DNA of 64,000 nt, from NCBI GenBank assembly GCA_029204225.1, contig CM055097.1, forward strand, positions 14,579,221-14,643,220. The letters are read 5' to 3'. Position numbers and translations under genes: made by a program. This stretch comes from Diphasiastrum complanatum (lineage: Eukaryota > Streptophyta > Lycopodiopsida > Lycopodiales > Lycopodiaceae). The notes under the pieces are model-generated. The model ran no database searches. It was not told where the DNA came from and saw only the letters and a list, made by a program, of their open reading frames with translations. Positions 4,801 to 52,460 of the stretch are shown here, in pieces; position 1 is the first letter of the stretch, and each line of letters begins with the position of its first letter.

Positions 4801-7800
4801 AACAAGTAGTGGGTGTAACAAGCCAAGGACTTTAATCCTTTTGACTTTATTGACCTGACACTTAGACAATGTGTCACATAATAGTAAACTTCCTTTCTTA
4901 ATTTAGGTCACCAAAAGTTACGCAGGATCAACTCATAGGTCTTATCCACACCAAGATGACTTGCACTAGGGCGATCTTACATAAATGCAAAATCTTTTTC
5001 GCGGCTCCTCGCAAGCTAGAATTAGAAGTCTACCACTTCTTTTCACTGTACCATCCTATGGTATACTTAAGGAAAGTGCGAGCAAACAGACCAGAGCTCT
5101 CCTCCTGAGACTCTACTTGTCGCAGGATTTGTCTCACACACAACTTCCTTACATGAGGATCCTCCTGTTGAGCCTGTCTAATCTCAACAATCAGATCATT
5201 TTTTATGACCACAAAAGACATCTAATACAATATCCGAGATATCATTAGCTCAACTCACCTGGCCTGCTACCCTCTCCAACTGGTCGCAAAATTACTTCAA
5301 AGTGTTATGGTCGATATATACATAAAACTCCATAGCATAGAAATATTGCCTCCCCTCTTTCAAAGCGCGAATTATAGCATACAACTTATTTGCATGGATC
5401 AGAAAATTATTTTGAGTAGGGTTGAGCTCCTTGCTCTCAAAGGCCAGTGGCCCACCCTCTTGCACCAAAACTACCCCAACGGCAATATCATTTGCATTCG
5501 TCTCTATGACTCATGAGAGTCAACAATTTTTTATGTGACAAAATTAGCTACAACATAATTCAAAGCATAAAACCTTTGATGTTGAACTTATGTCTGTTCC
5601 ATTTATTCTTTTGTAGCATATCATTCATGCCTTTATGATAAAACACATCCAATACAAGAAAGTCTCTTAATGTTGTTAAGTCTGTGTTGGAATATCAATC
5701 CACACTCTAGAGAGAACTATCAAACAAGGCGGATAGCTCAGTGGTAGAACATCCTATCCGGTATGAGGGAGGTCCAGGGTTCGAATCCTAGTCTGTCCAT
5801 CCATATTATGATTTATGGATTTCTAACATGGTATCAGAGCCAAGTTAGACCTAACAATTCATGGTGTCAAAGCCATGGTTAGGTGGCCCAAGTTGTGGGG
5901 CAGGTGACAGCTAGGACCCCAACCAAGTGTGGCTTGAGGGGGGGTGTTGGAATATCAATCCAAACTCTAGAGAGAACTATCAAACAGGGCGGATAGCTCA
6001 GTGGTAGAGCATCTCATCCGGTATGAGGGAGGGTCCTGGGTTCGAATCCTAGTCTGTCCATCCATATTATGATTTATGGATTTCTAACATGGTATCAGAG
6101 CCAAGTTAGACCTAACAGTTCATGGTGTCAAAGCCATGGTTAGGTGGCCCAAGATGTGGGGCAGGTGACAACTAGGACCCCAACCAAGTGTGGCTTGAGG
6201 GGGGGTGTTGGAATATCAATCCACACTCTAGAGAGAACTATCAAACAGGGCGGATAGCTCAATGGTAGAGCATCCCATCCGGTATGAGGGAGGTCCTGGG
6301 TTCGAATCCTAGTCTGTCCATCCATATTATGATTTATGGATTTCTAACAGTCTGCAGGTACATGCCAATCAAAAAGAACTACAAATTTCTTTGAATTCGA
6401 TTTTACACCTTCAACGGACACTATGAAACCCAAATATGTTATGTTCTTTTTTTGTTTTTGAAACAATTCACTTTTTTTTTTGTTAGCTGACAAAACATTT
6501 TTAAGGTGAGTTAAAAGTGAAGCATCACCACAATTGTAAACAAGTACATCATCAACAACATTCAGCACAAATTTGCCCATATAAAGTTTACGCACATCGT
6601 TCATTAACATCATGAATGTTGTTGGGGCATTATTACCAAAAATTCATAGTGACCAGAACGAATTTCAAAAGAAATTTTATTTACCTCTTCTTCATAAACT
6701 CTTACTAATGCTTCCTAATCTTCAAATCAACCTTACTAAACATAGTAGCACCATGAAAGGCATACAACAGATCAATACGTGAAAATAGGATATCGAAGCT
6801 TAACAATAATCTTTTCAAGCTTCAATAATTCACACATTCTCCAAGGCTACCCATCCTTCTTCTTAACAAAAATAAACGAAGAGGCAAAAGAGAAGAAGCA
6901 AGGCCCTATTTGCCCTCTGCAAAATAATCCTCAAACTTGCTTCTCACCTCTTTCTCCTCTTTCAGACTCAATTTATAAGATTGTCTATTAACAAGAGACG
7001 ATCCAAGAATCGATTCAATCTTATGTTCCACATTTCTTTTAGGGGGGAAAATACATGGAAGCTTCTCACATACAGTAGTCAACATATCAAACAAAAAACA
7101 AACATGCATATACTTATAGCAAACCTTACACAACTGAATAGTTGTGATCAATGGCCATGGAAAAACATCAAGCTCACCACGATGTGTGAATGGATCCTAC
7201 CATCATATTAAGTCTCGTACACATGAATATCCCACGTGATATAGGGCCTCCTCGTTACATGCCAACGAATCCCAAGCACCACATCGAAACACACCAAACA
7301 GATCATCTCAATATCCAACTCATTTAGGATATATAGACTGCATAGCGCCTGTGCATGTGCCATGCAACCCTAGTACACCCCTAACCCCAACTATTGATAC
7401 CCCTGGGCCCTCACCGTGCATACACCATGAACTGCATCACATGTCACAATTGGAATGCCTGGGCCCTCTCAAGGTTATTAATTACAAATCTGGCCTTGAA
7501 TGGAATTTTGAGGCATTCTTCTCCCCTTGAACTACTTCTATCCTTAAAACTGAAAATTAGGAAGGTTCTTTTTTATGCTTTTAGCTCTTTCTCAAAAATC
7601 ATCATCCTTAGTCCAACTTTTTCATGTGAACAAGCACTTGGAGATGAAACAATCTCAATTGTTTATCTCTAGTTTTGAACATTTTCTCAAGTTCCATGAG
7701 TACTAAGTGATAAATCTTCCAATTGAATTAGATCTTCAAATCCAAGCATTTCAATTTCATGTGAACTTAAATTTAACCGGCTTACATGAAATATTGGATG

Positions 7801-10800
7801 AGTAGTGGATCTGCCTTGAAGATCAAGTTCGTACGCTAAAGAACAAATTTTCTTTATAATCCAAAATCCCCCACAATATTTTGTGGACAAGTAGTCATGC
7901 TTCCCCATTTGCATAGTCTTGAAATCTTTTAAAGTTCTAAGATATACCCAATCATGAACTATAAAATCGCGAGATCTCTTAGGATTAGCATAATGCTTAG
8001 CCCTATATTGAGCGATACGAACACTCTCAAGAGCTAATTCCAATGTTTCTTGCATTTTATGCAAGAAATCTGCAACGTTCTGAATCTTAATAAATTTCGT
8101 CTCCACATTAACCAAACATCTAGGTTGAAAATTGTACATAAGCACAACGAAAGAAAGTTTTCTACCATTATAAGCAAACTCTATCCAAGGAAGGTATTCT
8201 TCCCAATGAGATTGCTTGTGAAAAACATACATCTTCAACATATCCTCCATATTCAGATTACTTCTTTCAATTCGTCCATCTAACTCAGGATGATCAATAC
8301 AACTAAAACTACTAGAGGTCTCAAGTTTATCGAAAACTGTAGACCATAAGTGACCTGTGAACTTCGAATCTATATCCTTAATGATATCGCTTGTTGGCAG
8401 TCCATAAGACTTGAATAATCTTTCAACAAAGGTGTGGGCTGAATCTAAAGCCTTTGCAATTCACTTAATTGGAATGACCGTAGCTATCATGCCCACGATT
8501 GAATTGATCTCAAATTAATATCCCGTAAAGAGGTCACTAGGCATATCTCAACCTGTAGATTAATTATGGTTATGAGGAGTGGGGGCCCTCATGGTGTTAA
8601 AGTCATAATAAATGGTATAGAGGACTAAAACTCAAGATGGTGGAGCTATATGGAACTAGCATTGACTCATAGGGGAGTGGGTGAGGTGGCCCAGTTAGGC
8701 TGTTGATGTGAGGTGTCACAATTCACTCCTAGATGGGGTGAAGCTTTGGAGGAAGTCTTAAAAGTGGTATCAGAGCCAAGTTTCGATAGAAGTTCCCTCC
8801 ACCAGGAGGAAGCCTTCCATTCGAGAAACAAGGACTCATGATATACGTTTATCTTCTGGAACATTGTGCAAGCTAAAATAGTTTGACCATCTATTAATCT
8901 AGTCTTCGACAACTTCGGAACATTTAATTTCCTTTCCCCCAATAAAAGCTTCCGGTTGATAGTCCAAGTTGTTGGAGTTAATAGATTGTAATTGATTAAA
9001 TAAATATTGCATCTGAATCATGATCGTCATGTTATTTGCTACGTAGGTGGAGTTCAAAAACCACTTTACTTAAGAGTATCTAGTAACTGGTTGGATTCGA
9101 TTGGTCCCCCCATTGCGGGAGAGATGGGTCGAGTTTCGAGAGAAGAAATTTGTCCCTCTCCAATGACTGGAATCTCCTCGTCATGGTATTCACGGTTGTC
9201 AGAACCGTGGGGTGGACCGTACCACGATCCATGAACCGTGGTACAATTCATCATAATTAATTAATTAATTACTCAATGTTTTGGCCTCATTTCAGTAAAA
9301 ATAAACTTAAAAAAAATTAATTAATTAATTATTAATTAAACGGTTCACCACTGTTCTGGCCAAAAAAATTTGAGAACCGTACGATTCTCAAAACCGTGGT
9401 GAAACATACACGGTTCATTGATTCTATGCTCCTCGTGTGCCATTTTCCTACGGGAAATGGAATGATTGCCTCAATTAGATAATTTGCAATATAAAAAACA
9501 AAGAATAATTCATAAAAAAATCACGAATTTCATGAATTAACATGCTTAATAATGTGGTGCATTAAGGCTTCCAAATTTCAGAAGTAACAAGATAATGCAG
9601 TATTTTAATCACAAGAAAACTTTTAGCATTTCAATCCCCATTAAGTGCTTTTATTGTGCCAAAGCCCAATGAGAACGTAATGGCTTTTATTCCATTAAAA
9701 GGAGCAAGTGAAAACGAAAACATGAGCCCCCCTCCCTTAAGCACACATGGACATACAAGATGAAAACCTTTCCATAATCTTGTAGGAAATCAAAGTGCCA
9801 AGATCCTTCTAACATTCAATCTCCATATACCAGAAGAAGAGGGAGAGGGTTAGGCGCCCTCAAGGAGAGAGAAAGTAGTAGCAATGCTTGAAAGGGAATG
9901 AATTACAAATGAACAATGAGTACATATAAATAGGCCTAGACTCTTCCAAACCCTAAGTTCTAGAACCTACCAGTTATAGGGCACCCCCAAAAGTCAAGAT
10001 AGGGTCCCTTAACATAATTAGACTTTACTTGGACCCACGAGTTACTACTAGACCAAAATTGGGTCCAACTTAACTAAAATTGACTTAACATGGTCTAAAT
10101 AATAAATCTAACCCATGGTTACACAAGTCTCGACCTTTTGGGTCAAAGTAACCTATGGGAAACTAACATTATCATTTATTATTTCTAACACCCTCCTTAA
10201 ATGATAATGTAAAAAACATAACATGACATGAAGCATGAAAAATTGCAACAAAAATGCAAAGTGTTGCATGCTGCCCAAAACTCCATGTAGCCGAAAAACA
10301 AAAGATGTAGCTTGCTGTCCAAGCTTAATGCCGCCAAAAAAACTTCAGCTTGAAGTAGTCGAAGCAGCCGAAATCTTAGCCCCAATCATGGCCGATGTAG
10401 AAGAGATGTAGAATACGAAGTGTGGTAGCATCAAGTCGAAGAGTGAAGACAAGCATGCTCCATCCAAAGTAGGTAACCAAAAAACCAGCCACAAGCCGAA
10501 ATATGGATTTGCAATCCATCAATGGTTCCCACATGATTCCATAAATATTCTTACCACAAGAAACATAAAAAAGAGTATAATACTCTTTTACCATCACATC
10601 CTCCCGAATCTTACGATCAATGATCTGCTCACCAATACTAGGTAAGGCAACACCGCCATCATAAGAAGTAAGCATCAAAACAGGAAAATCAGTATAAGGT
10701 ACTGATATTGGTGAGGCACGTGTGTTTCCTACAAAGTAAAAAAATGCTTTGCTATCCCGCAAAGACTCGGACAGCCAACAAGAGGCTGTAGCAGGCTGTC

Positions 10801-13800
10801 CAACAGCCACAAAATCACCAACACTTTGCTGTCCAAAGTGTTCCAAATGTGGACCTTGCTGTCCAAAAACCTTCCGCAGGCCATTCCCGATGCATAATAG
10901 GATGCTCACGATGTAACATAGGCTGAAAATGATCAAAAAACCATGGCTGAATCTGCTGTCCACCATCTTCAAGAAAAAAACCAGCAGCTTGCCACTTTGA
11001 ACACCCAAAAAATCCAGCAACACGCCACTTTGAACCAATGTACTAATTGACATGATTTTTTCCCCTCCTCCATTAGTACAAAATGGCTTCAAAGAATGCT
11101 TGATTTCAGCCTTTTCCAAAACATTAACTTGAGAAGCTTGCTCATAAAGTTCTTCACTAATGCATCCATCATTTGCAACAAATGGCTCAAGAAAAGACGA
11201 ATGCTCTACCATACCAACATTCTGATGCAAACTTGTACTTGTAAAAAGACAATGATCAAACTTTGCATGCCTTTGCTCTTCTACCTTCAAAGAGGATGAA
11301 GTAGAGAGGAGAAAGCATGACGATGAATCCGTTATTTGGTACATCTTTAAAAGTGTTTCCCAAGCACTTTTAAAGTCTTGCAAAATCTTAAATGATATAA
11401 GATAGATCTTGTTACCGATAAAATCTTGATCATCACGTCGATGCCAAACCTCAGCTTGCAACTCCATGAAGAATAGTTGGTGCCATCCAACATATCTTCG
11501 CCCGAACAAGTACGAATTGCTCCCAAATCTCTTGCCATAAGAACTAGCCAAGAAGATAAACTTTTTCAAACCCTAAATGTGGCCTAAAAGACACAAAAAC
11601 CAACAAGTATCAAATCTGAAAAATCAGCACCGGAATGTGTCGAAACCACACATTAGATGGATGTAGGAACTCATCTACAAGCCTTGTGCGCTGAAAATTT
11701 CAGCCTGAAATTGCATTACAAACTCAAAAAACCAGCAAGCAAAGAATTAAGTTAGCCTCCAACAAAGCTTTTTTCCGGAACCCTTCTTTCTTGCCAAAAA
11801 GTGTGAACAATACACACACGGATAGGGTTGTTGCAACACCCTACAAATGGTAATATGCTGTCCAATTTTCAGTCTCGGAATGTGATCGGATCATCACAAA
11901 AAAATTAGCCCCTTCTTCCACACCTGGAAACAAGCAAAAATAAGCAGATCTTCACTTTGTAAAATCAGCAACAGTGCTGATTTTCCAGCCAAATCAGAAG
12001 AATAGAAATTGCTTGTAGATGGGCGCCCTCCTGCAAAGGAGCAAATCTGAAAAATAGGGCAGCAGCGGACCAACGGAAGTAGGATAAACCTACACGGATG
12101 TGGGCGACCTAAAAGAACCCCCGAAGAAGATAACTAATGGCGCCTTCCTGCAACCTGAAAAATCAGCAAACAACAACCTGATTTTTGGGCGCCCAAAATC
12201 CTGTTATCTTCTTTGATGTGTGGCGCCCTCCTGCAAAACGGAAAAGAGTCAAAAACCGGATCTTCACTCCAAAAAATCAGCAAAGGTGCTGAATTTTTGT
12301 GATTCCTAAGTGAAGACGATCTCTTTTGGTAGGGCGCCCTAAATCAAGCATAGAAGATCCATGGCTCTGATACCATGTAGGAAATCAAAGTGCCAAGATC
12401 CTTCTAACATTCAATCTCCATATACCAGAAGAAGAGGGAGAGGGTTAGGCGCCCTCAAAGAGAGAGAAAGTAGTAGCAATGCTTGAAAGGGAATGAATTA
12501 CAAATGAATAATGAGTACATATAAATAGGCCTTCCAAGGGCCTAGACTCTTCCAAACCCTAAGTTCTAGAACCTACTAATTATAGGGCACCCCCAAAAGT
12601 CAAGATAGGGTCCTTAACATAATTAGACTTTACTTGGACCCATGAGTTACTACTAGACCAAAATTGGGTCCAACTTAACTAAAATTGACTTAACATGGTC
12701 TAAATAATAAACCTAACCCATGGTTACACAAGTCTCGACCTTTTGGGTCAAAGTAACCTATGGGAAACTAACATTATCATTTATTATTTCTAACAAATCT
12801 TGTCAGTCAGATTGTGGATTTATAAAAAGGGCCACAAGGAATTTCGTAAATTCTAGGATGGATTCCAAGAAACAATTCCAAGCAAGCACACTACAACCTT
12901 GGGGTGGACAAACGATACATAGTGCAGAATTTCCTGTAGCCAGAATTCAAATGGAGTGATTGCAGAAAAGACCACCCCTAGTAGAGGTGACTTTTTAAGT
13001 GTCTTACCCTCTTTTGTTTGTCAACTATTGCCAGCTCCTTTTGTTCATGTTCTGCTAAAAGATCTACTGGCTCTTTCTTCTTTTCCTGAATCTTTCTTTG
13101 TTCCTCACTCATCTTCACTGTGTCCTTGTCCTCAATATGCTTCACTGCTATCTGTTTATGCGGCCTGAATTGCACAAAATGGTTAATACAAGCCTATTTT
13201 GAGCTCAAGTTTGACGAAAAAGTTACGTGATAAAATTCAAAAGAGAGAGGAAAAAGCAATCTCCTCGAAACACCACTAATTGGACATAAGACAATTCAAC
13301 ATCACAAATGCAAAAACATCAACCATTCCTAGCTCACCCCTTTTTGGTTCAGATAATTTCCATTTAACAGCGTTGCAAGTTGCAGCTTACCTTCCATCCA
13401 GTTCTCTGTTTTCAGCATCGGAATGCGCTTCCTGTGTCTCATATCTGTGTACCTCCATCAGTCTTTGCTTGTTATTAGGGCATATTCCGTCAAGCTGTCC
13501 TACACTTTCTTGAACTGCCTCTCTGTCAGGACCTAAATTTAAATCTGCAGGACGGTCCTGTTCATCTTTCTTTTTCTTACTCTGTCCTACCACTTCCTCT
13601 CGCTTTCTAGCTGCTATGGCCTGATGCTCATCAATATTTTCCTCCAATTGATTTCTAACAACTGTGGAACTGAGTGATCGTTCAACTAGCTCGTGTAAAA
13701 CTTCTAGCTTTGATGAAGGGTCTAATTGCTTGTAAGAACCTTGCCGTATTACTGATGATAGGGATTTGAATCTTTGAGATTCTCCAGATTCTAGAATGTC

Positions 13801-45703: not shown

Positions 45704-45844
45704 TATTAGAGTTTGCATCTCATTCATAGTATATTAATTTTTCTACATTGGCAAGATTGGTGATTTATTGTTTTTCTAACCAAAGATCAAAGGGATGTTT
45801 TTGGATCTTAATGATCTGAAATTATTCACATGGTATCAAAGCTC
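45704..45844 (+). repeat. 5' LTR terminus and primer site of the copia element
   Basis: 45704-45830 recurs at 47673-47803 with a few changes and ends in CA. TGGTATCAAAGCTC differs from the usual Met primer site by one base (AAAGC for AGAGC). Confidence 0.8.
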
Positions 45845-46430
45845 TTGTATTTTAGGTTATGAAGTAAGCAATCACATCTATCAAGGATTTGGAGGAGATA
45901 TCAATGCTAGAGCATGCTAGATTGACTTCTACCCAAAAATCGAGTTTCTTGCATATGTAGATTGGATCTTTTGTAGATCAAAACTCAGATTAGATCTATA
46001 TACTTGATCAATTCTGATTTCCCACTTCACATACTGAATTTGACCAATTTTTGATGCATTAGACAAGCCTAAGTGGTGGCTACAAGATTGCATATCAAGT
46101 TTTAGGCAATTGCATGTAGAATTTGAAATATTCAATTTTTTGTGATTTTTTTAAAATCCTAATTTTGATTGGATCTCTATTTGTGAGGTTGCTGAACTTC
46201 ATTTGAGTGTGTTTCAATCTTAGGAAGTGGCAAGAGTCATTAGATTGAGGACAAATCATAGGTTGATCAAGATTTTACTATTCTATTTGTTGATTTGTTT
46301 GATATATGTGCTAGAAGAGAATTGAGAAATTCCATATCTTTGTGATTTCTTTTTAAAAACATTTGTTGTTGTTAAAAGGAGTGCTTTTTGCATTGGAACA
46401 GGTTGGAAGAAAGGATCAGGTCATTGCTAC

Positions 46431-47318
46431 ATGGCTACATCAAATGGATTCATGTTGGAAGGCAATGATAGGCTTACCTCAAGCAACTATTCATTGTGGA
46501 AAGTGAGGATGGAATCACTTCTTGAGATGAATGATGTTTTAGATATTGTTGTAGGTTTTGAGGATAGGCCGGCAACACAACAAGATCAAGTGAGGTATGA
46601 CAAGAGAGCTAAAAGAGCTCTTCATATGATCAAGATGAATGTTACTAATGAACTTCTCAAGGAAGTTGGTAAGTGTACTTCATCAAGTGAGGCTTGGAAA
46701 GCTTTGAAGAAGGTTTATGAATCCAAGTCTACATCTAGAGTGTTGACTCTAAGAAGACAAATCTTTCAATGTTTGCAAAAGAGTGAAGAGAGTCCAAATA
46801 CTTTTGTTTTAAGAGTAAAAGCTTTGAATGATGAGTTGGCTTGCATTGATGAGAGCATTAAGGAAGGAGAGCTTGTTCAAGTTATTCTTAATGGTTTGTT
46901 GGATGCTCATTCTAACATTGTACAAAGTATTGCTATTCAAAGGACTTTGACAAGTTTGATGGATCTTCAAGAGATCTTGATCAATGAAGAATATAGGCTT
47001 CAAGCAAGAGGTGGATCTTCATCAACATCTCAAGTTCGAGAGGAGGCTATGTTCATCAAGGGAAAAAGCAACAGTAAGTGGTCTAAAGGGCAAGATCAAG
47101 GGGAGGCTTCTTCAAATGGCAAAAAGAAAGATAGGTCAAAGTTCAAGTGCTTCTATTGTGGCATCAAAGGAGACTTTGCAAGTGAGTGCAACAAGAAGAA
47201 GAGAGATCAAGGAGACAAGCAAGGTAATCTAACTCTTGTGGATGGTTTGGATGTTCAAAATACAAATGATAATGCTTATGTGATGTCTTCATGTATACTT
47301 CTAATGATGGAGATCTAG
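46431..47318 (+). CDS. Copia Gag polyprotein, zinc knuckle altered
   Basis: 295 codons from a good ATG (MATSNGFMLEGNDRLTSSNY, SLWKVRMESLLEM). The UBN2-type Gag domain spans residues ~15-190 (AWKALKKVYESKSTSRVLTL, ILNGLLDAHSNIVQSI). Near residue 245 is CFYCGIKGDFASEC, a CCHC-type knuckle in which the zinc-binding His is Asp. A frameshift at the end diverts the frame to MEI-stop, where the shifted frame continues into protease. Gag would form the particle shell and package RNA; the lost His would be expected to weaken RNA binding. This is the longest intact transposon frame in the window. Confidence 0.85.
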   Translation: MATSNGFMLEGNDRLTSSNYSLWKVRMESLLEMNDVLDIVVGFEDRPATQQDQVRYDKRAKRALHMIKMNVTNELLKEVGKCTSSSEAWKALKKVYESKSTSRVLTLRRQIFQCLQKSEESPNTFVLRVKALNDELACIDESIKEGELVQVILNGLLDAHSNIVQSIAIQRTLTSLMDLQEILINEEYRLQARGGSSSTSQVREEAMFIKGKSNSKWSKGQDQGEASSNGKKKDRSKFKCFYCGIKGDFASECNKKKRDQGDKQGNLTLVDGLDVQNTNDNAYVMSSCILLMMEI

Positions 47319-51680: not shown

Positions 51681-52460
51681 TCAGCTCTTTTCTGCACTGG
51701 AAGACAGCTTATATTGTGATGACGAAGAGGACATCCTCACCGAGCTCCCTTGGTGCTGGCTTGATGATGACGATGATGCCTTCTCTATGGTGGTTGTCTT
51801 TGATGCTTGCATTTGAGAATCAACCTCAACTGAAGGGGCTAACTCTGGCAATACTGGTGCAATTATGATATTTTCCTGCACAGTTAATACATCGGCATGC
51901 ATACATAGAATACCCATATGCAAACCAAGTCTAAAAAATTGATTAATCTTTACTAATTTATAGAATTGCTTAAAAATAGTCTGTCCGAAGGCAATGGGTT
52001 CTCCGTTCAGGGCTCTCAGCAGGTATCCCATATTCGTGTTAAAAATTGTATACTCTTGTTCCGGTAAGAATATAGAAGCAAGAGCGAATCGCACAAAGCT
52101 TTTGAGATTGGGATCTCTGATATAAGAGAGTTTATATCCCTGTTTCTCAAGATAAGCTTTTTCTTGAAAAACTCCGCTCTCAGTGATGAAGTCTGGATTT
52201 GTAACAGGCATATTGTCGTCCATAGGCAAACCTAAGGCACGACAGTAAAATCCTTCTGTAATAATGATCTCTTGATCTCGGACAGTGGTGAAAATATGTC
52301 CTTCCTCTGTCTCGTTCAGATTTCGGATCAGCTCATGGCACACATCCGTAAGGATTACTGAAGGGCCAAATTGAAGAAGTCCTTCAATCCGAGCTCGTAT
52401 AACTAATGGTTGTAAAACCGGTAAGACTGGCTTTGGGTGCGTTTTGAACACAATCGCCAT
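51681..52460 (-). CDS. Unrecognised 259-residue protein, possibly transposon-encoded
   Basis: Opens at a true ATG (MAIVFKTHPKPVLPVLQPLV). A globular part with VRDQEIIITEGFYCRALGLP and RFALASIFLPEQEYTIFNTN is followed by a Ser-rich tail (KASSSSSSQHQG, RMSSSSSQYKLSSS). The VRG/VRD..I.....LGLP pattern recalls the 'putative plant transposon protein' domain (Transposase_32) but I am not sure. It is intact although the neighbouring Ty3 pol is decayed. It could be an extra ORF in the env-like position of that Ty3 element or part of a different element. Confidence 0.5.
   Translation of the reverse strand: MAIVFKTHPKPVLPVLQPLVIRARIEGLLQFGPSVILTDVCHELIRNLNETEEGHIFTTVRDQEIIITEGFYCRALGLPMDDNMPVTNPDFITESGVFQEKAYLEKQGYKLSYIRDPNLKSFVRFALASIFLPEQEYTIFNTNMGYLLRALNGEPIAFGQTIFKQFYKLVKINQFFRLGLHMGILCMHADVLTVQENIIIAPVLPELAPSVEVDSQMQASKTTTIEKASSSSSSQHQGSSVRMSSSSSQYKLSSSAEKS

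What the first reader, a model, noticed from the sequence alone, without database searches (positions are those of the whole stretch)
5685..6349. TRIM retroelement whose LTRs each contain a tRNA-like sequence
Seen: three 144-145-bp LTRs with TG...CA ends, each holding a 73-74-nt tRNA-like unit with A and B boxes and pairable acceptor, D, anticodon and T arms, plus primer site, polypurine tract and a GTCTG duplication. Known: Cassandra TRIMs carry 5S rRNA sequence in the LTR. I recall no TRIM family with a tRNA-like LTR. Inference: a Pol III promoter has been captured again, this time from a tRNA or tRNA-derived SINE, giving a Pol III-driven retroelement.
Basis: partly seen in the sequence, partly recalled or inferred. 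Interest (0 to 1): 0.9.

Follow-up and report, generated by a model that had tools for sequence, protein, structure and literature searches.

The report
Clubmoss mini-retrotransposon with tRNA-like ends
A very short jumping element in a clubmoss carries a tRNA-like stretch, probably a borrowed promoter, in each of its ends; this kind of element was described in 2024, but here it has left recombinant copies that point to the larger elements that move it.

Summary
Window 5685-6349 is a TRIM retroelement: three 144-145-nt LTRs, each with a tRNA-like unit, two 116-nt internals with PBS and polypurine tract, and a GTCTG duplication. Rfam's tRNA model scores the units 27.2, 48.8 and 49.8 bits (gathering 29). 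The kind is not new: TRIMs with tRNA-derived LTR sequence are 'Helenus' (PMC10886601), with one plant listed, Selaginella. The host is most likely Diphasiastrum complanatum, another lycophyte. A pattern with exact LTR flanks and a 62-92-nt insert has 954 matches; with a short insert it has 3, all deletion remnants. A second tRNA-LTR family is present. Of 20 fetched contexts of the unit, 19 are LTRs and one is a fragment. The unexpected part: F1 LTRs are joined, at the PBS, to non-TRIM sequence at 46 places (one read case, probably two, is a mere TRIM deletion); 25 places show the reciprocal Copia-LTR/TRIM-internal joint. Three of four TRIM-Copia complexes with both flanks seen have perfect 5-bp duplications. 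This suggests co-packaging of TRIM and Copia RNAs with template switching at the PBS. Pol III transcription is inferred from A and B boxes; no RNA was seen, and no within-family constraint on the unit could be shown.

The parts
5680..5684 (.). target-site duplication GTCTG, left copy
5685..5828 (+). LTR1 (144 nt)
5727..5799 (+). tRNA-like unit 1 (A box 5734-5744 TAGCTCAGTGG, B box 5778-5788 GGTTCGAATCC)
   Evidence: ARAGORN; RF00005 27.2 bits (below gathering 29); box positions read
5829..5841 (+). primer-binding site TGGTATCAGAGCC (initiator-Met type, recalled)
5829..5944 (+). internal domain 1 (116 nt), ending in polypurine tract GAGGGGGGG 5936-5944
5945..6089 (+). LTR2 (145 nt)
5987..6060 (+). 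tRNA-like unit 2
   Evidence: ARAGORN; RF00005 48.8 bits
6090..6205 (+). internal domain 2 (116 nt) with PBS at 6090-6102 and polypurine tract 6197-6205
6206..6349 (+). LTR3 (144 nt)
6248..6320 (+). tRNA-like unit 3
   Evidence: ARAGORN; RF00005 49.8 bits
6350..6354 (.). target-site duplication GTCTG, right copy
9781..12795 (-). copy of retroelement group B (LTR matches at both ends), the family whose internal region is found fused to TRIM LTRs elsewhere; relative of an inferred helper, not part of the TRIM
   Evidence: (86-94% to L074/L078)

Best explanation
A non-autonomous LTR retroelement (TRIM) of the tRNA-LTR type named Helenus, in a clubmoss genome (probably Diphasiastrum complanatum). 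SHOWN: LTR-internal-LTR anatomy, tRNA-like unit in the LTRs, PBS, PPT, 5-bp duplications, over 900 LTR matches, a second related family, and recurrent PBS-exact junctions with Copia internals and Copia LTRs. INFERRED: Pol III starts near the 5' end of the tRNA-like unit of the left LTR and reads through the short internal domain into the next LTR, giving an R-U5-PBS-internal-U3-R RNA; this RNA is packaged in Copia particles, primed at its PBS by a host tRNA that the Copias also use, copied by Copia reverse transcriptase and inserted by Copia integrase. When TRIM and Copia RNAs share a particle, the growing strand sometimes switches template at the shared PBS. This gives TRIM-LTR/PBS/Copia-internal/Copia-LTR/PBS/TRIM-internal/TRIM-LTR complexes and the reciprocal arrangement. 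The same kind of switch between two TRIM RNAs can give three-LTR elements such as the one in the window, which has a single TSD pair.
For: Anatomy. TSDs: of 33 complete F1 insertions in the fetched loci, 24 have perfect 5-bp TSDs, 3 have 4 of 5, 4 were not scored because an end is mutated (3 of these match by eye), 2 have none; one of those 2 (L058) is the right part of the C3 complex, whose outer TSD matches. One pair among the 24 (L070/L071) is a duplicated locus. Copy number: 954 matches; 666 B-box-to-PBS matches, control 0; the listed places, about 100, are all F1 or F2 by eye. Between families: F1 and F2 tRNA-like parts align over their whole length (0 of 1000 shuffles as high), the 5' flanks share only 9 nt (17 of 1000) and the 3' flanks nothing above chance (963 of 1000). 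19 Rfam tRNA hits in 15 loci of both families. Of 30 aligned units 28 keep TAGCTCARTGG and 24 keep GGTTCRANNCC. Co-packaging: one search lists 46 F1-LTR-end+PBS sites followed by non-TRIM sequence (control 0); of 20 fetched, 8 are group A, 5 group B, 2 group C, 4 others, 1 a TRIM deletion; 25 reciprocal Copia-LTR-end+PBS+TRIM-internal sites (control 0). Group A has a Copia gag domain (PF14223, E 1.3e-25) and its own LTR of about 450 nt before the second PBS. Perfect TSDs round three TRIM-Copia complexes: GATAC (L066/L067), TAAGT (L111/L119), GTGCT (L059/L058); a fourth candidate has 4 of 5 (L120/L023).
Against: No RNA evidence. Within family 1 the tRNA-like part is more, not less, variable than the LTR flanks (non-CpG non-majority frequency 0.022 against 0.013 and 0.009; 81 LTRs; 99% of random site sets are as low or higher in conservation), although the sample was picked by similarity and by exact flanks, so it is not a fair test. 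On 30 units the covariation score equals the shuffle mean (243 of 500 reach it); double-changed cells do stand out (9 against 5.0, 6 of 500), but 8 of the 9 come from one pair that separates the two families; RNAalifold does not recover the cloverleaf. ARAGORN calls no unit in 6 of 15 loci, all family 2. Absence of T4 in the F1 unit means nothing (387 of 500 shuffles lack it too), and 10 of 14 family-2 LTRs have TTTT between the unit and the LTR end, which could stop Pol III early. Some junctions may come from DNA-level recombination (for example the inverted L089/L090). Group B, C and the single partners were not shown to be Copia by Pfam: the group B ORF of the window had no match; B is placed by 69-71% similarity of its leader to group A. 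Many loci are duplicated in this assembly, so counts of places exceed counts of events.
Confidence: 0.75

Rival explanations
1. The tRNA-like unit is a passive or structural passenger (RNA packaging, stability, or leftover), and transcription is by Pol II like in ordinary TRIMs.
For: No within-family constraint on the unit or its boxes seen; covariation score not above shuffles; 10 of 14 family-2 LTRs carry TTTT downstream of the unit; no RNA data.
Against: Between the two families the unit is the only part of the LTR that still aligns well; 28 and 24 of 30 units keep the A and B box motifs; D and T arms, which hold the boxes, are 99.2% and 97.3% paired while acceptor and anticodon arms are 86.2% and 84.7%.
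Confidence: 0.22
2. A tRNA-derived SINE landed in one progenitor LTR and the tRNA-like units are mostly independent SINEs or tRNA genes.
For: Capture through a SINE is the route proposed for Helenus and Cassandra (PMC10886601 discussion), and may be the remote origin here too.
Against: Of 20 contexts 19 are LTRs and one a fragment (two near-identical pairs among them); all 30 loci fetched with the unit alone as query (L039-L068, of 40 listed and 1605 candidates) show an F1 LTR, some cut, though these are the hits closest to the window's own unit; no LTR without the unit except 3 deletions; TSDs flank the LTR element.
Confidence: 0.04
3. TRIM-Copia junctions arose by DNA recombination between integrated copies, so they say nothing about packaging.
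For: Some loci are rearranged (L089/L090 inverted; L035), and LTR-LTR recombination can also make arrays (recalled; also PMC1950507).
Against: The shared stretch at the joint is only about 15 nt (ACATGGTATCAGAGC), centred on the PBS, at 46 + 25 places; three complexes have one perfect TSD pair outside both partners, one of the criteria that Sabot and Schulman use for template switching (PMC1950507, whole text read).
Confidence: 0.2

Closest known systems
Helenus (TRIMs with tRNA-derived LTR sequence; 'TRIMp3'), Kojima 2024, PMC10886601
   Same: tRNA-derived unit with A and B boxes in the LTRs, under 1 kb or little more, PBS and PPT, 5-bp TSDs in plants and fungi, tandem arrays seen in one family, Copia as inferred helper of fungal families; a lycophyte (Selaginella) is the only plant listed.
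   Different: Here another lycophyte order (Lycopodiales, if the host is Diphasiastrum); LTR 144 and internal 116 nt (family 2: about 153 and 73) against 120 and 85 in Helenus-1_SMo; helper evidence here comes from junction complexes with TSDs, whereas Kojima used PBS, internal and TSD-length similarity. Words beginning 'chimer' do not occur in that paper's main text. Sequence was not compared with Repbase entries.
Cassandra (TRIM with 5S rRNA sequence in the LTRs)
   Same: Small-RNA-gene promoter in the LTR, TGGTATCAGAGC PBS, short arrays of about three LTRs (PMC7215508, passages).
   Different: tRNA-like, not 5S: Rfam at 5600-6450 finds tRNA and no 5S. Kojima states that there is no indication of the autonomous element that moves Cassandra.
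Template-switching complex elements of Triticeae (Sabot and Schulman 2007, PMC1950507)
   Same: Extra internal LTR, two internals, outer TSD, explained by two RNAs in one particle; the paper also names VejuL and BARE2 as apparent products of jumps between different RNAs.
   Different: Their complexes joined members of one family, modelled through R; here a TRIM and unrelated larger elements are joined through the shared PBS.
SMART and its partner FRetro64
   Same: TRIM paired with an autonomous element (as told in PMC10886601).
   Different: There a part of the internal regions is alike and the LTRs are not; here the likeness, by eye, is in the LTR ends and PBS.

Membership tests
Helenus | tRNA-derived sequence inside the LTRs | tested here: met
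Helenus | TRIM: short LTR element (screened under 1000 bp in PMC10886601) | tested here: met
   665 nt with three LTRs, about 404 nt with two
Helenus | PBS behind the 5' LTR and PPT before the 3' LTR | tested here: met
   666 B-box-to-PBS matches
Helenus | 5-bp TSD (plant and fungal families) | tested here: met
   24 of 33 complete insertions perfect, (one duplicated locus among them)
Helenus | no coding capacity | tested here: inconclusive
   internal domain is 116 nt; ORFs were listed only from 200 aa
Helenus | sequence kinship with a named Helenus family | not testable with these tools
Helenus | functional Pol III promoter | not testable with these tools
   box motifs kept in 28 and 24 of 30 units, no RNA data; not shown for published Helenus either
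Cassandra | 5S rRNA sequence in the LTR | tested here: not met
SINE | stand-alone tRNA-headed unit with own TSDs | tested here: not met
   (20 contexts only)
Template-switching complex element | internal extra LTR with one outer TSD pair | tested here: met
   window element GTCTG; C2, C6, C3 TRIM-Copia complexes
Template-switching complex element | outer LTRs nearly identical | tested here: inconclusive
   window LTR1/LTR3 139 of 144, while LTR2/LTR3 are 141 of 145; outer LTRs of the TRIM-Copia complexes were not compared

The most novel reading that the evidence does not exclude
The PBS acts as a recombination gateway between a Pol III-type TRIM and several Copia families sharing its particles, so that composite elements bounded by tRNA-bearing LTRs carry a whole Copia (internal plus LTR) and insert as units. 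Parasite and helper can thus carry each other, and some composites (group A: 14 of the 46 places, 8 of them read and 6 judged by their first five letters, with at least one duplicated locus) may have multiplied as such.
Probability: 0.3. Interest if true: 0.7.

Novelty: new member of a known kind. Interest (0 to 1): 0.5.

Why it matters
It extends tRNA-LTR TRIMs to a second plant, a clubmoss, with over 900 LTR matches. It also offers a genomic record of which larger elements such a TRIM shares particles with. Helper identity is mostly inferred from likeness, and Kojima states it is unknown for Cassandra. If the junctions are what they seem, the helpers can be named from DNA alone, and the question whether a Pol III RNA is packaged and copied by Copia becomes testable.

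Tried and rejected
Absence of T4 in the F1 unit as a Pol III sign: rejected, 387 of 500 shuffles lack it. Within-family conservation of the boxes: not seen, sample unsuitable. Covariation of the cloverleaf: score at the shuffle mean, cloverleaf not recovered. A strong-stop-like junction (L086) as evidence for the RNA start: only two identical places in the genome, taken as one event, not used. L073 first looked like a long autonomous relative with tRNA LTRs; L074-L078 show that this element has its own unrelated LTR. Standalone SINE origin: not supported. The tRNA isotype of origin was not resolved; anticodon calls disagree. Partners C to G were not classified.

Full report
OBSERVATION. The window element is as described. 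Three LTRs (5685-5828, 5945-6089, 6206-6349) alternate with two 116-nt internals, flanked by GTCTG on both sides. ARAGORN finds a tRNA-like unit in each LTR and nowhere else in the window. Rfam's tRNA model gives 27.2, 48.8 and 49.8 bits against a gathering score of 29, so two of three pass. The PBS is TGGTATCAGAGCC; the tract before LTR2 and LTR3 is GAGGGGGGG.

HOST. The assembly is unnamed: 1.74 Gb, 5176 contigs. A Copia gag ORF of the window (46431-47315) has five database hits, and both that carry a name are Diphasiastrum complanatum. One of these proteins (P0005) was searched in the assembly: five stretches covering residues 1-91, 124-203, 189-236, 234-320 and 317-375 of 451 lie in order on contig C18, at 100, 79, 96, 99 and 95% identity. 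The host is therefore D. complanatum or something very close, a lycophyte of Lycopodiales. The assembly holds near-identical duplicated loci, the window's own among them: L001 and L002 agree at 99.9% over 3.66 kb, 0.54 Mb apart. Counts of places below are therefore upper bounds on events.

FAMILY. A pattern with exact 5' and 3' LTR flanks and a 62-92-nt insert matches 954 places, reversed control 0. With a 0-30-nt insert it matches 3, and each keeps edges of the tRNA-like unit, so they are deletions; two of the three are copies of one locus. An older LTR without the unit and with diverged flanks would escape this test. Of 33 complete F1 insertions in the fetched loci, 24 have perfect 5-bp TSDs, 3 have 4 of 5, 2 have none and 4 were unscored because a terminal dinucleotide is mutated; three of those four match by eye. 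One of the two without is the right-hand part of a complex whose outer flanks do match. Clusters had 1 (1 case), 2 (24), 3 (5) or 5 (3) LTRs.

SECOND FAMILY. Fourteen LTR copies in L037, L004, L083, L084, L087, L091-L093, L096 and L098 belong to a second tRNA-LTR TRIM, with LTR about 153 nt and an internal of 73 nt in L098. Its units score up to 56.6 bits, although ARAGORN calls none in 6 of the loci. Against family 1 the tRNA-like part aligns over its whole length (0 of 1000 shuffles as high), the 5' flanks share one 9-nt block (17 of 1000), the 3' flanks nothing (963 of 1000), and the internals share the PPT region (30 of 1000). I read this as one origin with the unit kept while the rest drifted; two captures of one source cannot be excluded.

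STANDALONE UNITS. The core pattern of the tRNA-like unit has 1509 matches (about 100 are listed). I fetched 20 regions chosen from that list, 16 of them because no partner was listed at the usual spacing, so they favour solitary units. Nineteen are in F1 or F2 LTRs, complete or cut; L086 is a piece of family 2 inside a Copia-like pol region (pol recognised by eye). Two pairs among the 20 (L089/L090, L091/L092) are near-identical loci.

CONSTRAINT AND STRUCTURE. In 30 units of both families the D arm is 99.2% and the T arm 97.3% paired, the acceptor 86.2% and the anticodon arm 84.7%; 91.0% of cells are paired overall, against 28.6-48.7% when the partners are slid. The covariation score equals the shuffle mean (243 of 500). 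Percentage paired (27 of 500) and double-changed cells (6 of 500) are higher than most shuffles, but 8 of the 9 double-changed cells belong to one pair that separates the families. RNAalifold does not give the cloverleaf. Within F1 the unit is more variable than the flanks (sample biased by selection on flanks and similarity). So promoter function rests on the A and B box motifs (kept in 28 and 24 of 30 units) and on the between-family comparison, not on covariation or within-family constraint.

JUNCTIONS WITH COPIA. While checking diverged hits I found an F1 LTR joined at the PBS to another retroelement's internal (L072, L073). That element (group B) has its own LTR of 422-458 nt in the five other loci fetched, L074-L078. 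A pattern for F1 LTR end + PBS + non-TRIM sequence gives 46 places, control 0. Twenty were fetched: group A 8, group B 5, group C 2, four single other sequences, and one simple TRIM deletion, L116. The other 26 were judged only by the five letters shown; one (C686) begins like L116 and may be a deletion too. Two pairs among the 20 are near-identical loci (L107/L108 98.9%, L117/L118 99.9%), so independent events are fewer than 46. The reciprocal joint (Copia LTR end TTTCCTACA + PBS + TRIM internal) occurs at 25 places, control 0.

By position and strand the two lists pair up in two ways. Form (i), about one TRIM unit apart: C10 twice (one duplicated locus), C11 twice, C20 and C682. Form (ii), 2.5-9.4 kb apart: C4, C14 and C17. 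In eight of these nine the letters beside the two joints name the same partner group (A with GC, B with GA); on C17 the first joint is unclassified. C2 is a further form (ii) case whose left PBS is mutated and so is not. On C2 both ends were read: F1 LTR - PBS - group A leader and gag (PF14223), and at the other end reverse-transcriptase- and RNase H-like frames (recognised by eye; the RNase H piece gave no Pfam hit) - a Copia LTR - PBS - TRIM internal - F1 LTR, with GATAC outside on both sides; about 2.1 kb in the middle was not fetched. On C6 the left LTR is preceded by TAAGT and the array at the right end is followed by TAAGT (middle unread). On C3 a TRIM, 1.06 kb of group A leader and gag, and a TRIM array lie between GTGCT and GTGCT, held in full in two overlapping loci. 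A fourth candidate on C12 has GGTCA against GGTCT. C4, C14 and C17 were not read through.

READING. Matching outer TSDs mean these complexes were inserted as units. The joints fall in the roughly 15 nt that TRIM and Copia share round the PBS. Template switching between co-packaged RNAs explains both forms: a minus strand that has reached the TRIM PBS can pair with the PBS of a Copia RNA, copy its LTR and internal, and be completed by TRIM plus-strand strong-stop DNA at the Copia PBS. Sabot and Schulman proposed this class of event for members of one family, and name VejuL and BARE2 as apparent products of jumps between different RNAs (PMC1950507). The three-LTR element of the window fits their scheme too, although its outer LTRs (139 of 144) are not more alike than LTR2 and LTR3 (141 of 145).

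KNOWN OR NEW. The kind is Helenus (PMC10886601). I found no report of Helenus in Lycopodiales or of TRIM-Copia PBS complexes in the searches. These cover only an open-licence library and list only the best-ranked papers, so absence there is weak evidence. For PMC10886601 I read abstract, results, discussion, part of the methods, legends and tables; for PMC1950507 the whole text; for PMC7215508 and PMC10853983 passages only; the others only as search listings.

Noticed in passing
window 5685-6349 and C6:15121094-15121757 (L002): The window's TRIM and its surroundings occur a second time 0.54 Mb away, 99.9% identical over 3.66 kb: a segmental duplication or an assembly duplicate.
   Followed up: partly
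window 9781-12795 (-): A group B retroelement copy with LTR matches at both ends (86-94% to L074/L078), the family found fused to TRIM LTRs elsewhere, 3.4 kb from the TRIM; internal region short for a full Copia.
   Followed up: partly
window 45737-47315 (+): Leader 77-81% like the partner sequence of the inverted TRIM loci L089/L090, followed by a Copia gag ORF (PF14223 E 3.9e-23): that partner is probably Copia as well.
   Followed up: partly
L089 and L090 (C1:89.32 Mb, C1:92.90 Mb): Inverted TRIM pair whose LTRs continue into the same non-TRIM sequence behind the PBS; two loci 98.9% identical, 3.6 Mb apart.
   Followed up: no
L086 (C1:54976214) and C17:35422248: Family 2 LTR end and PBS fused directly to the 5' end of a tRNA-like unit (L086 inside a Copia-like pol region); just these two identical junctions matched in the genome.
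   Followed up: partly
L046: A TRIM inserted directly behind a PBS-like sequence of another retroelement, TSD GAGCC.
   Followed up: no
L004 2163-2950: Cluster of decayed family 2 and family 1-like LTR pieces next to a three-LTR F1 array.
   Followed up: no
window 5829-5890 and 6090-6150: The internal domain holds a second, degenerate LTR-end-plus-PBS-like stretch (CCTAACAATTCATGGTGTCAAAGCC) about 20-30 nt behind the true PBS.
   Followed up: no
window 51684-52460 (-): ORF of 259 aa without any Pfam match at E 0.001.
   Followed up: no
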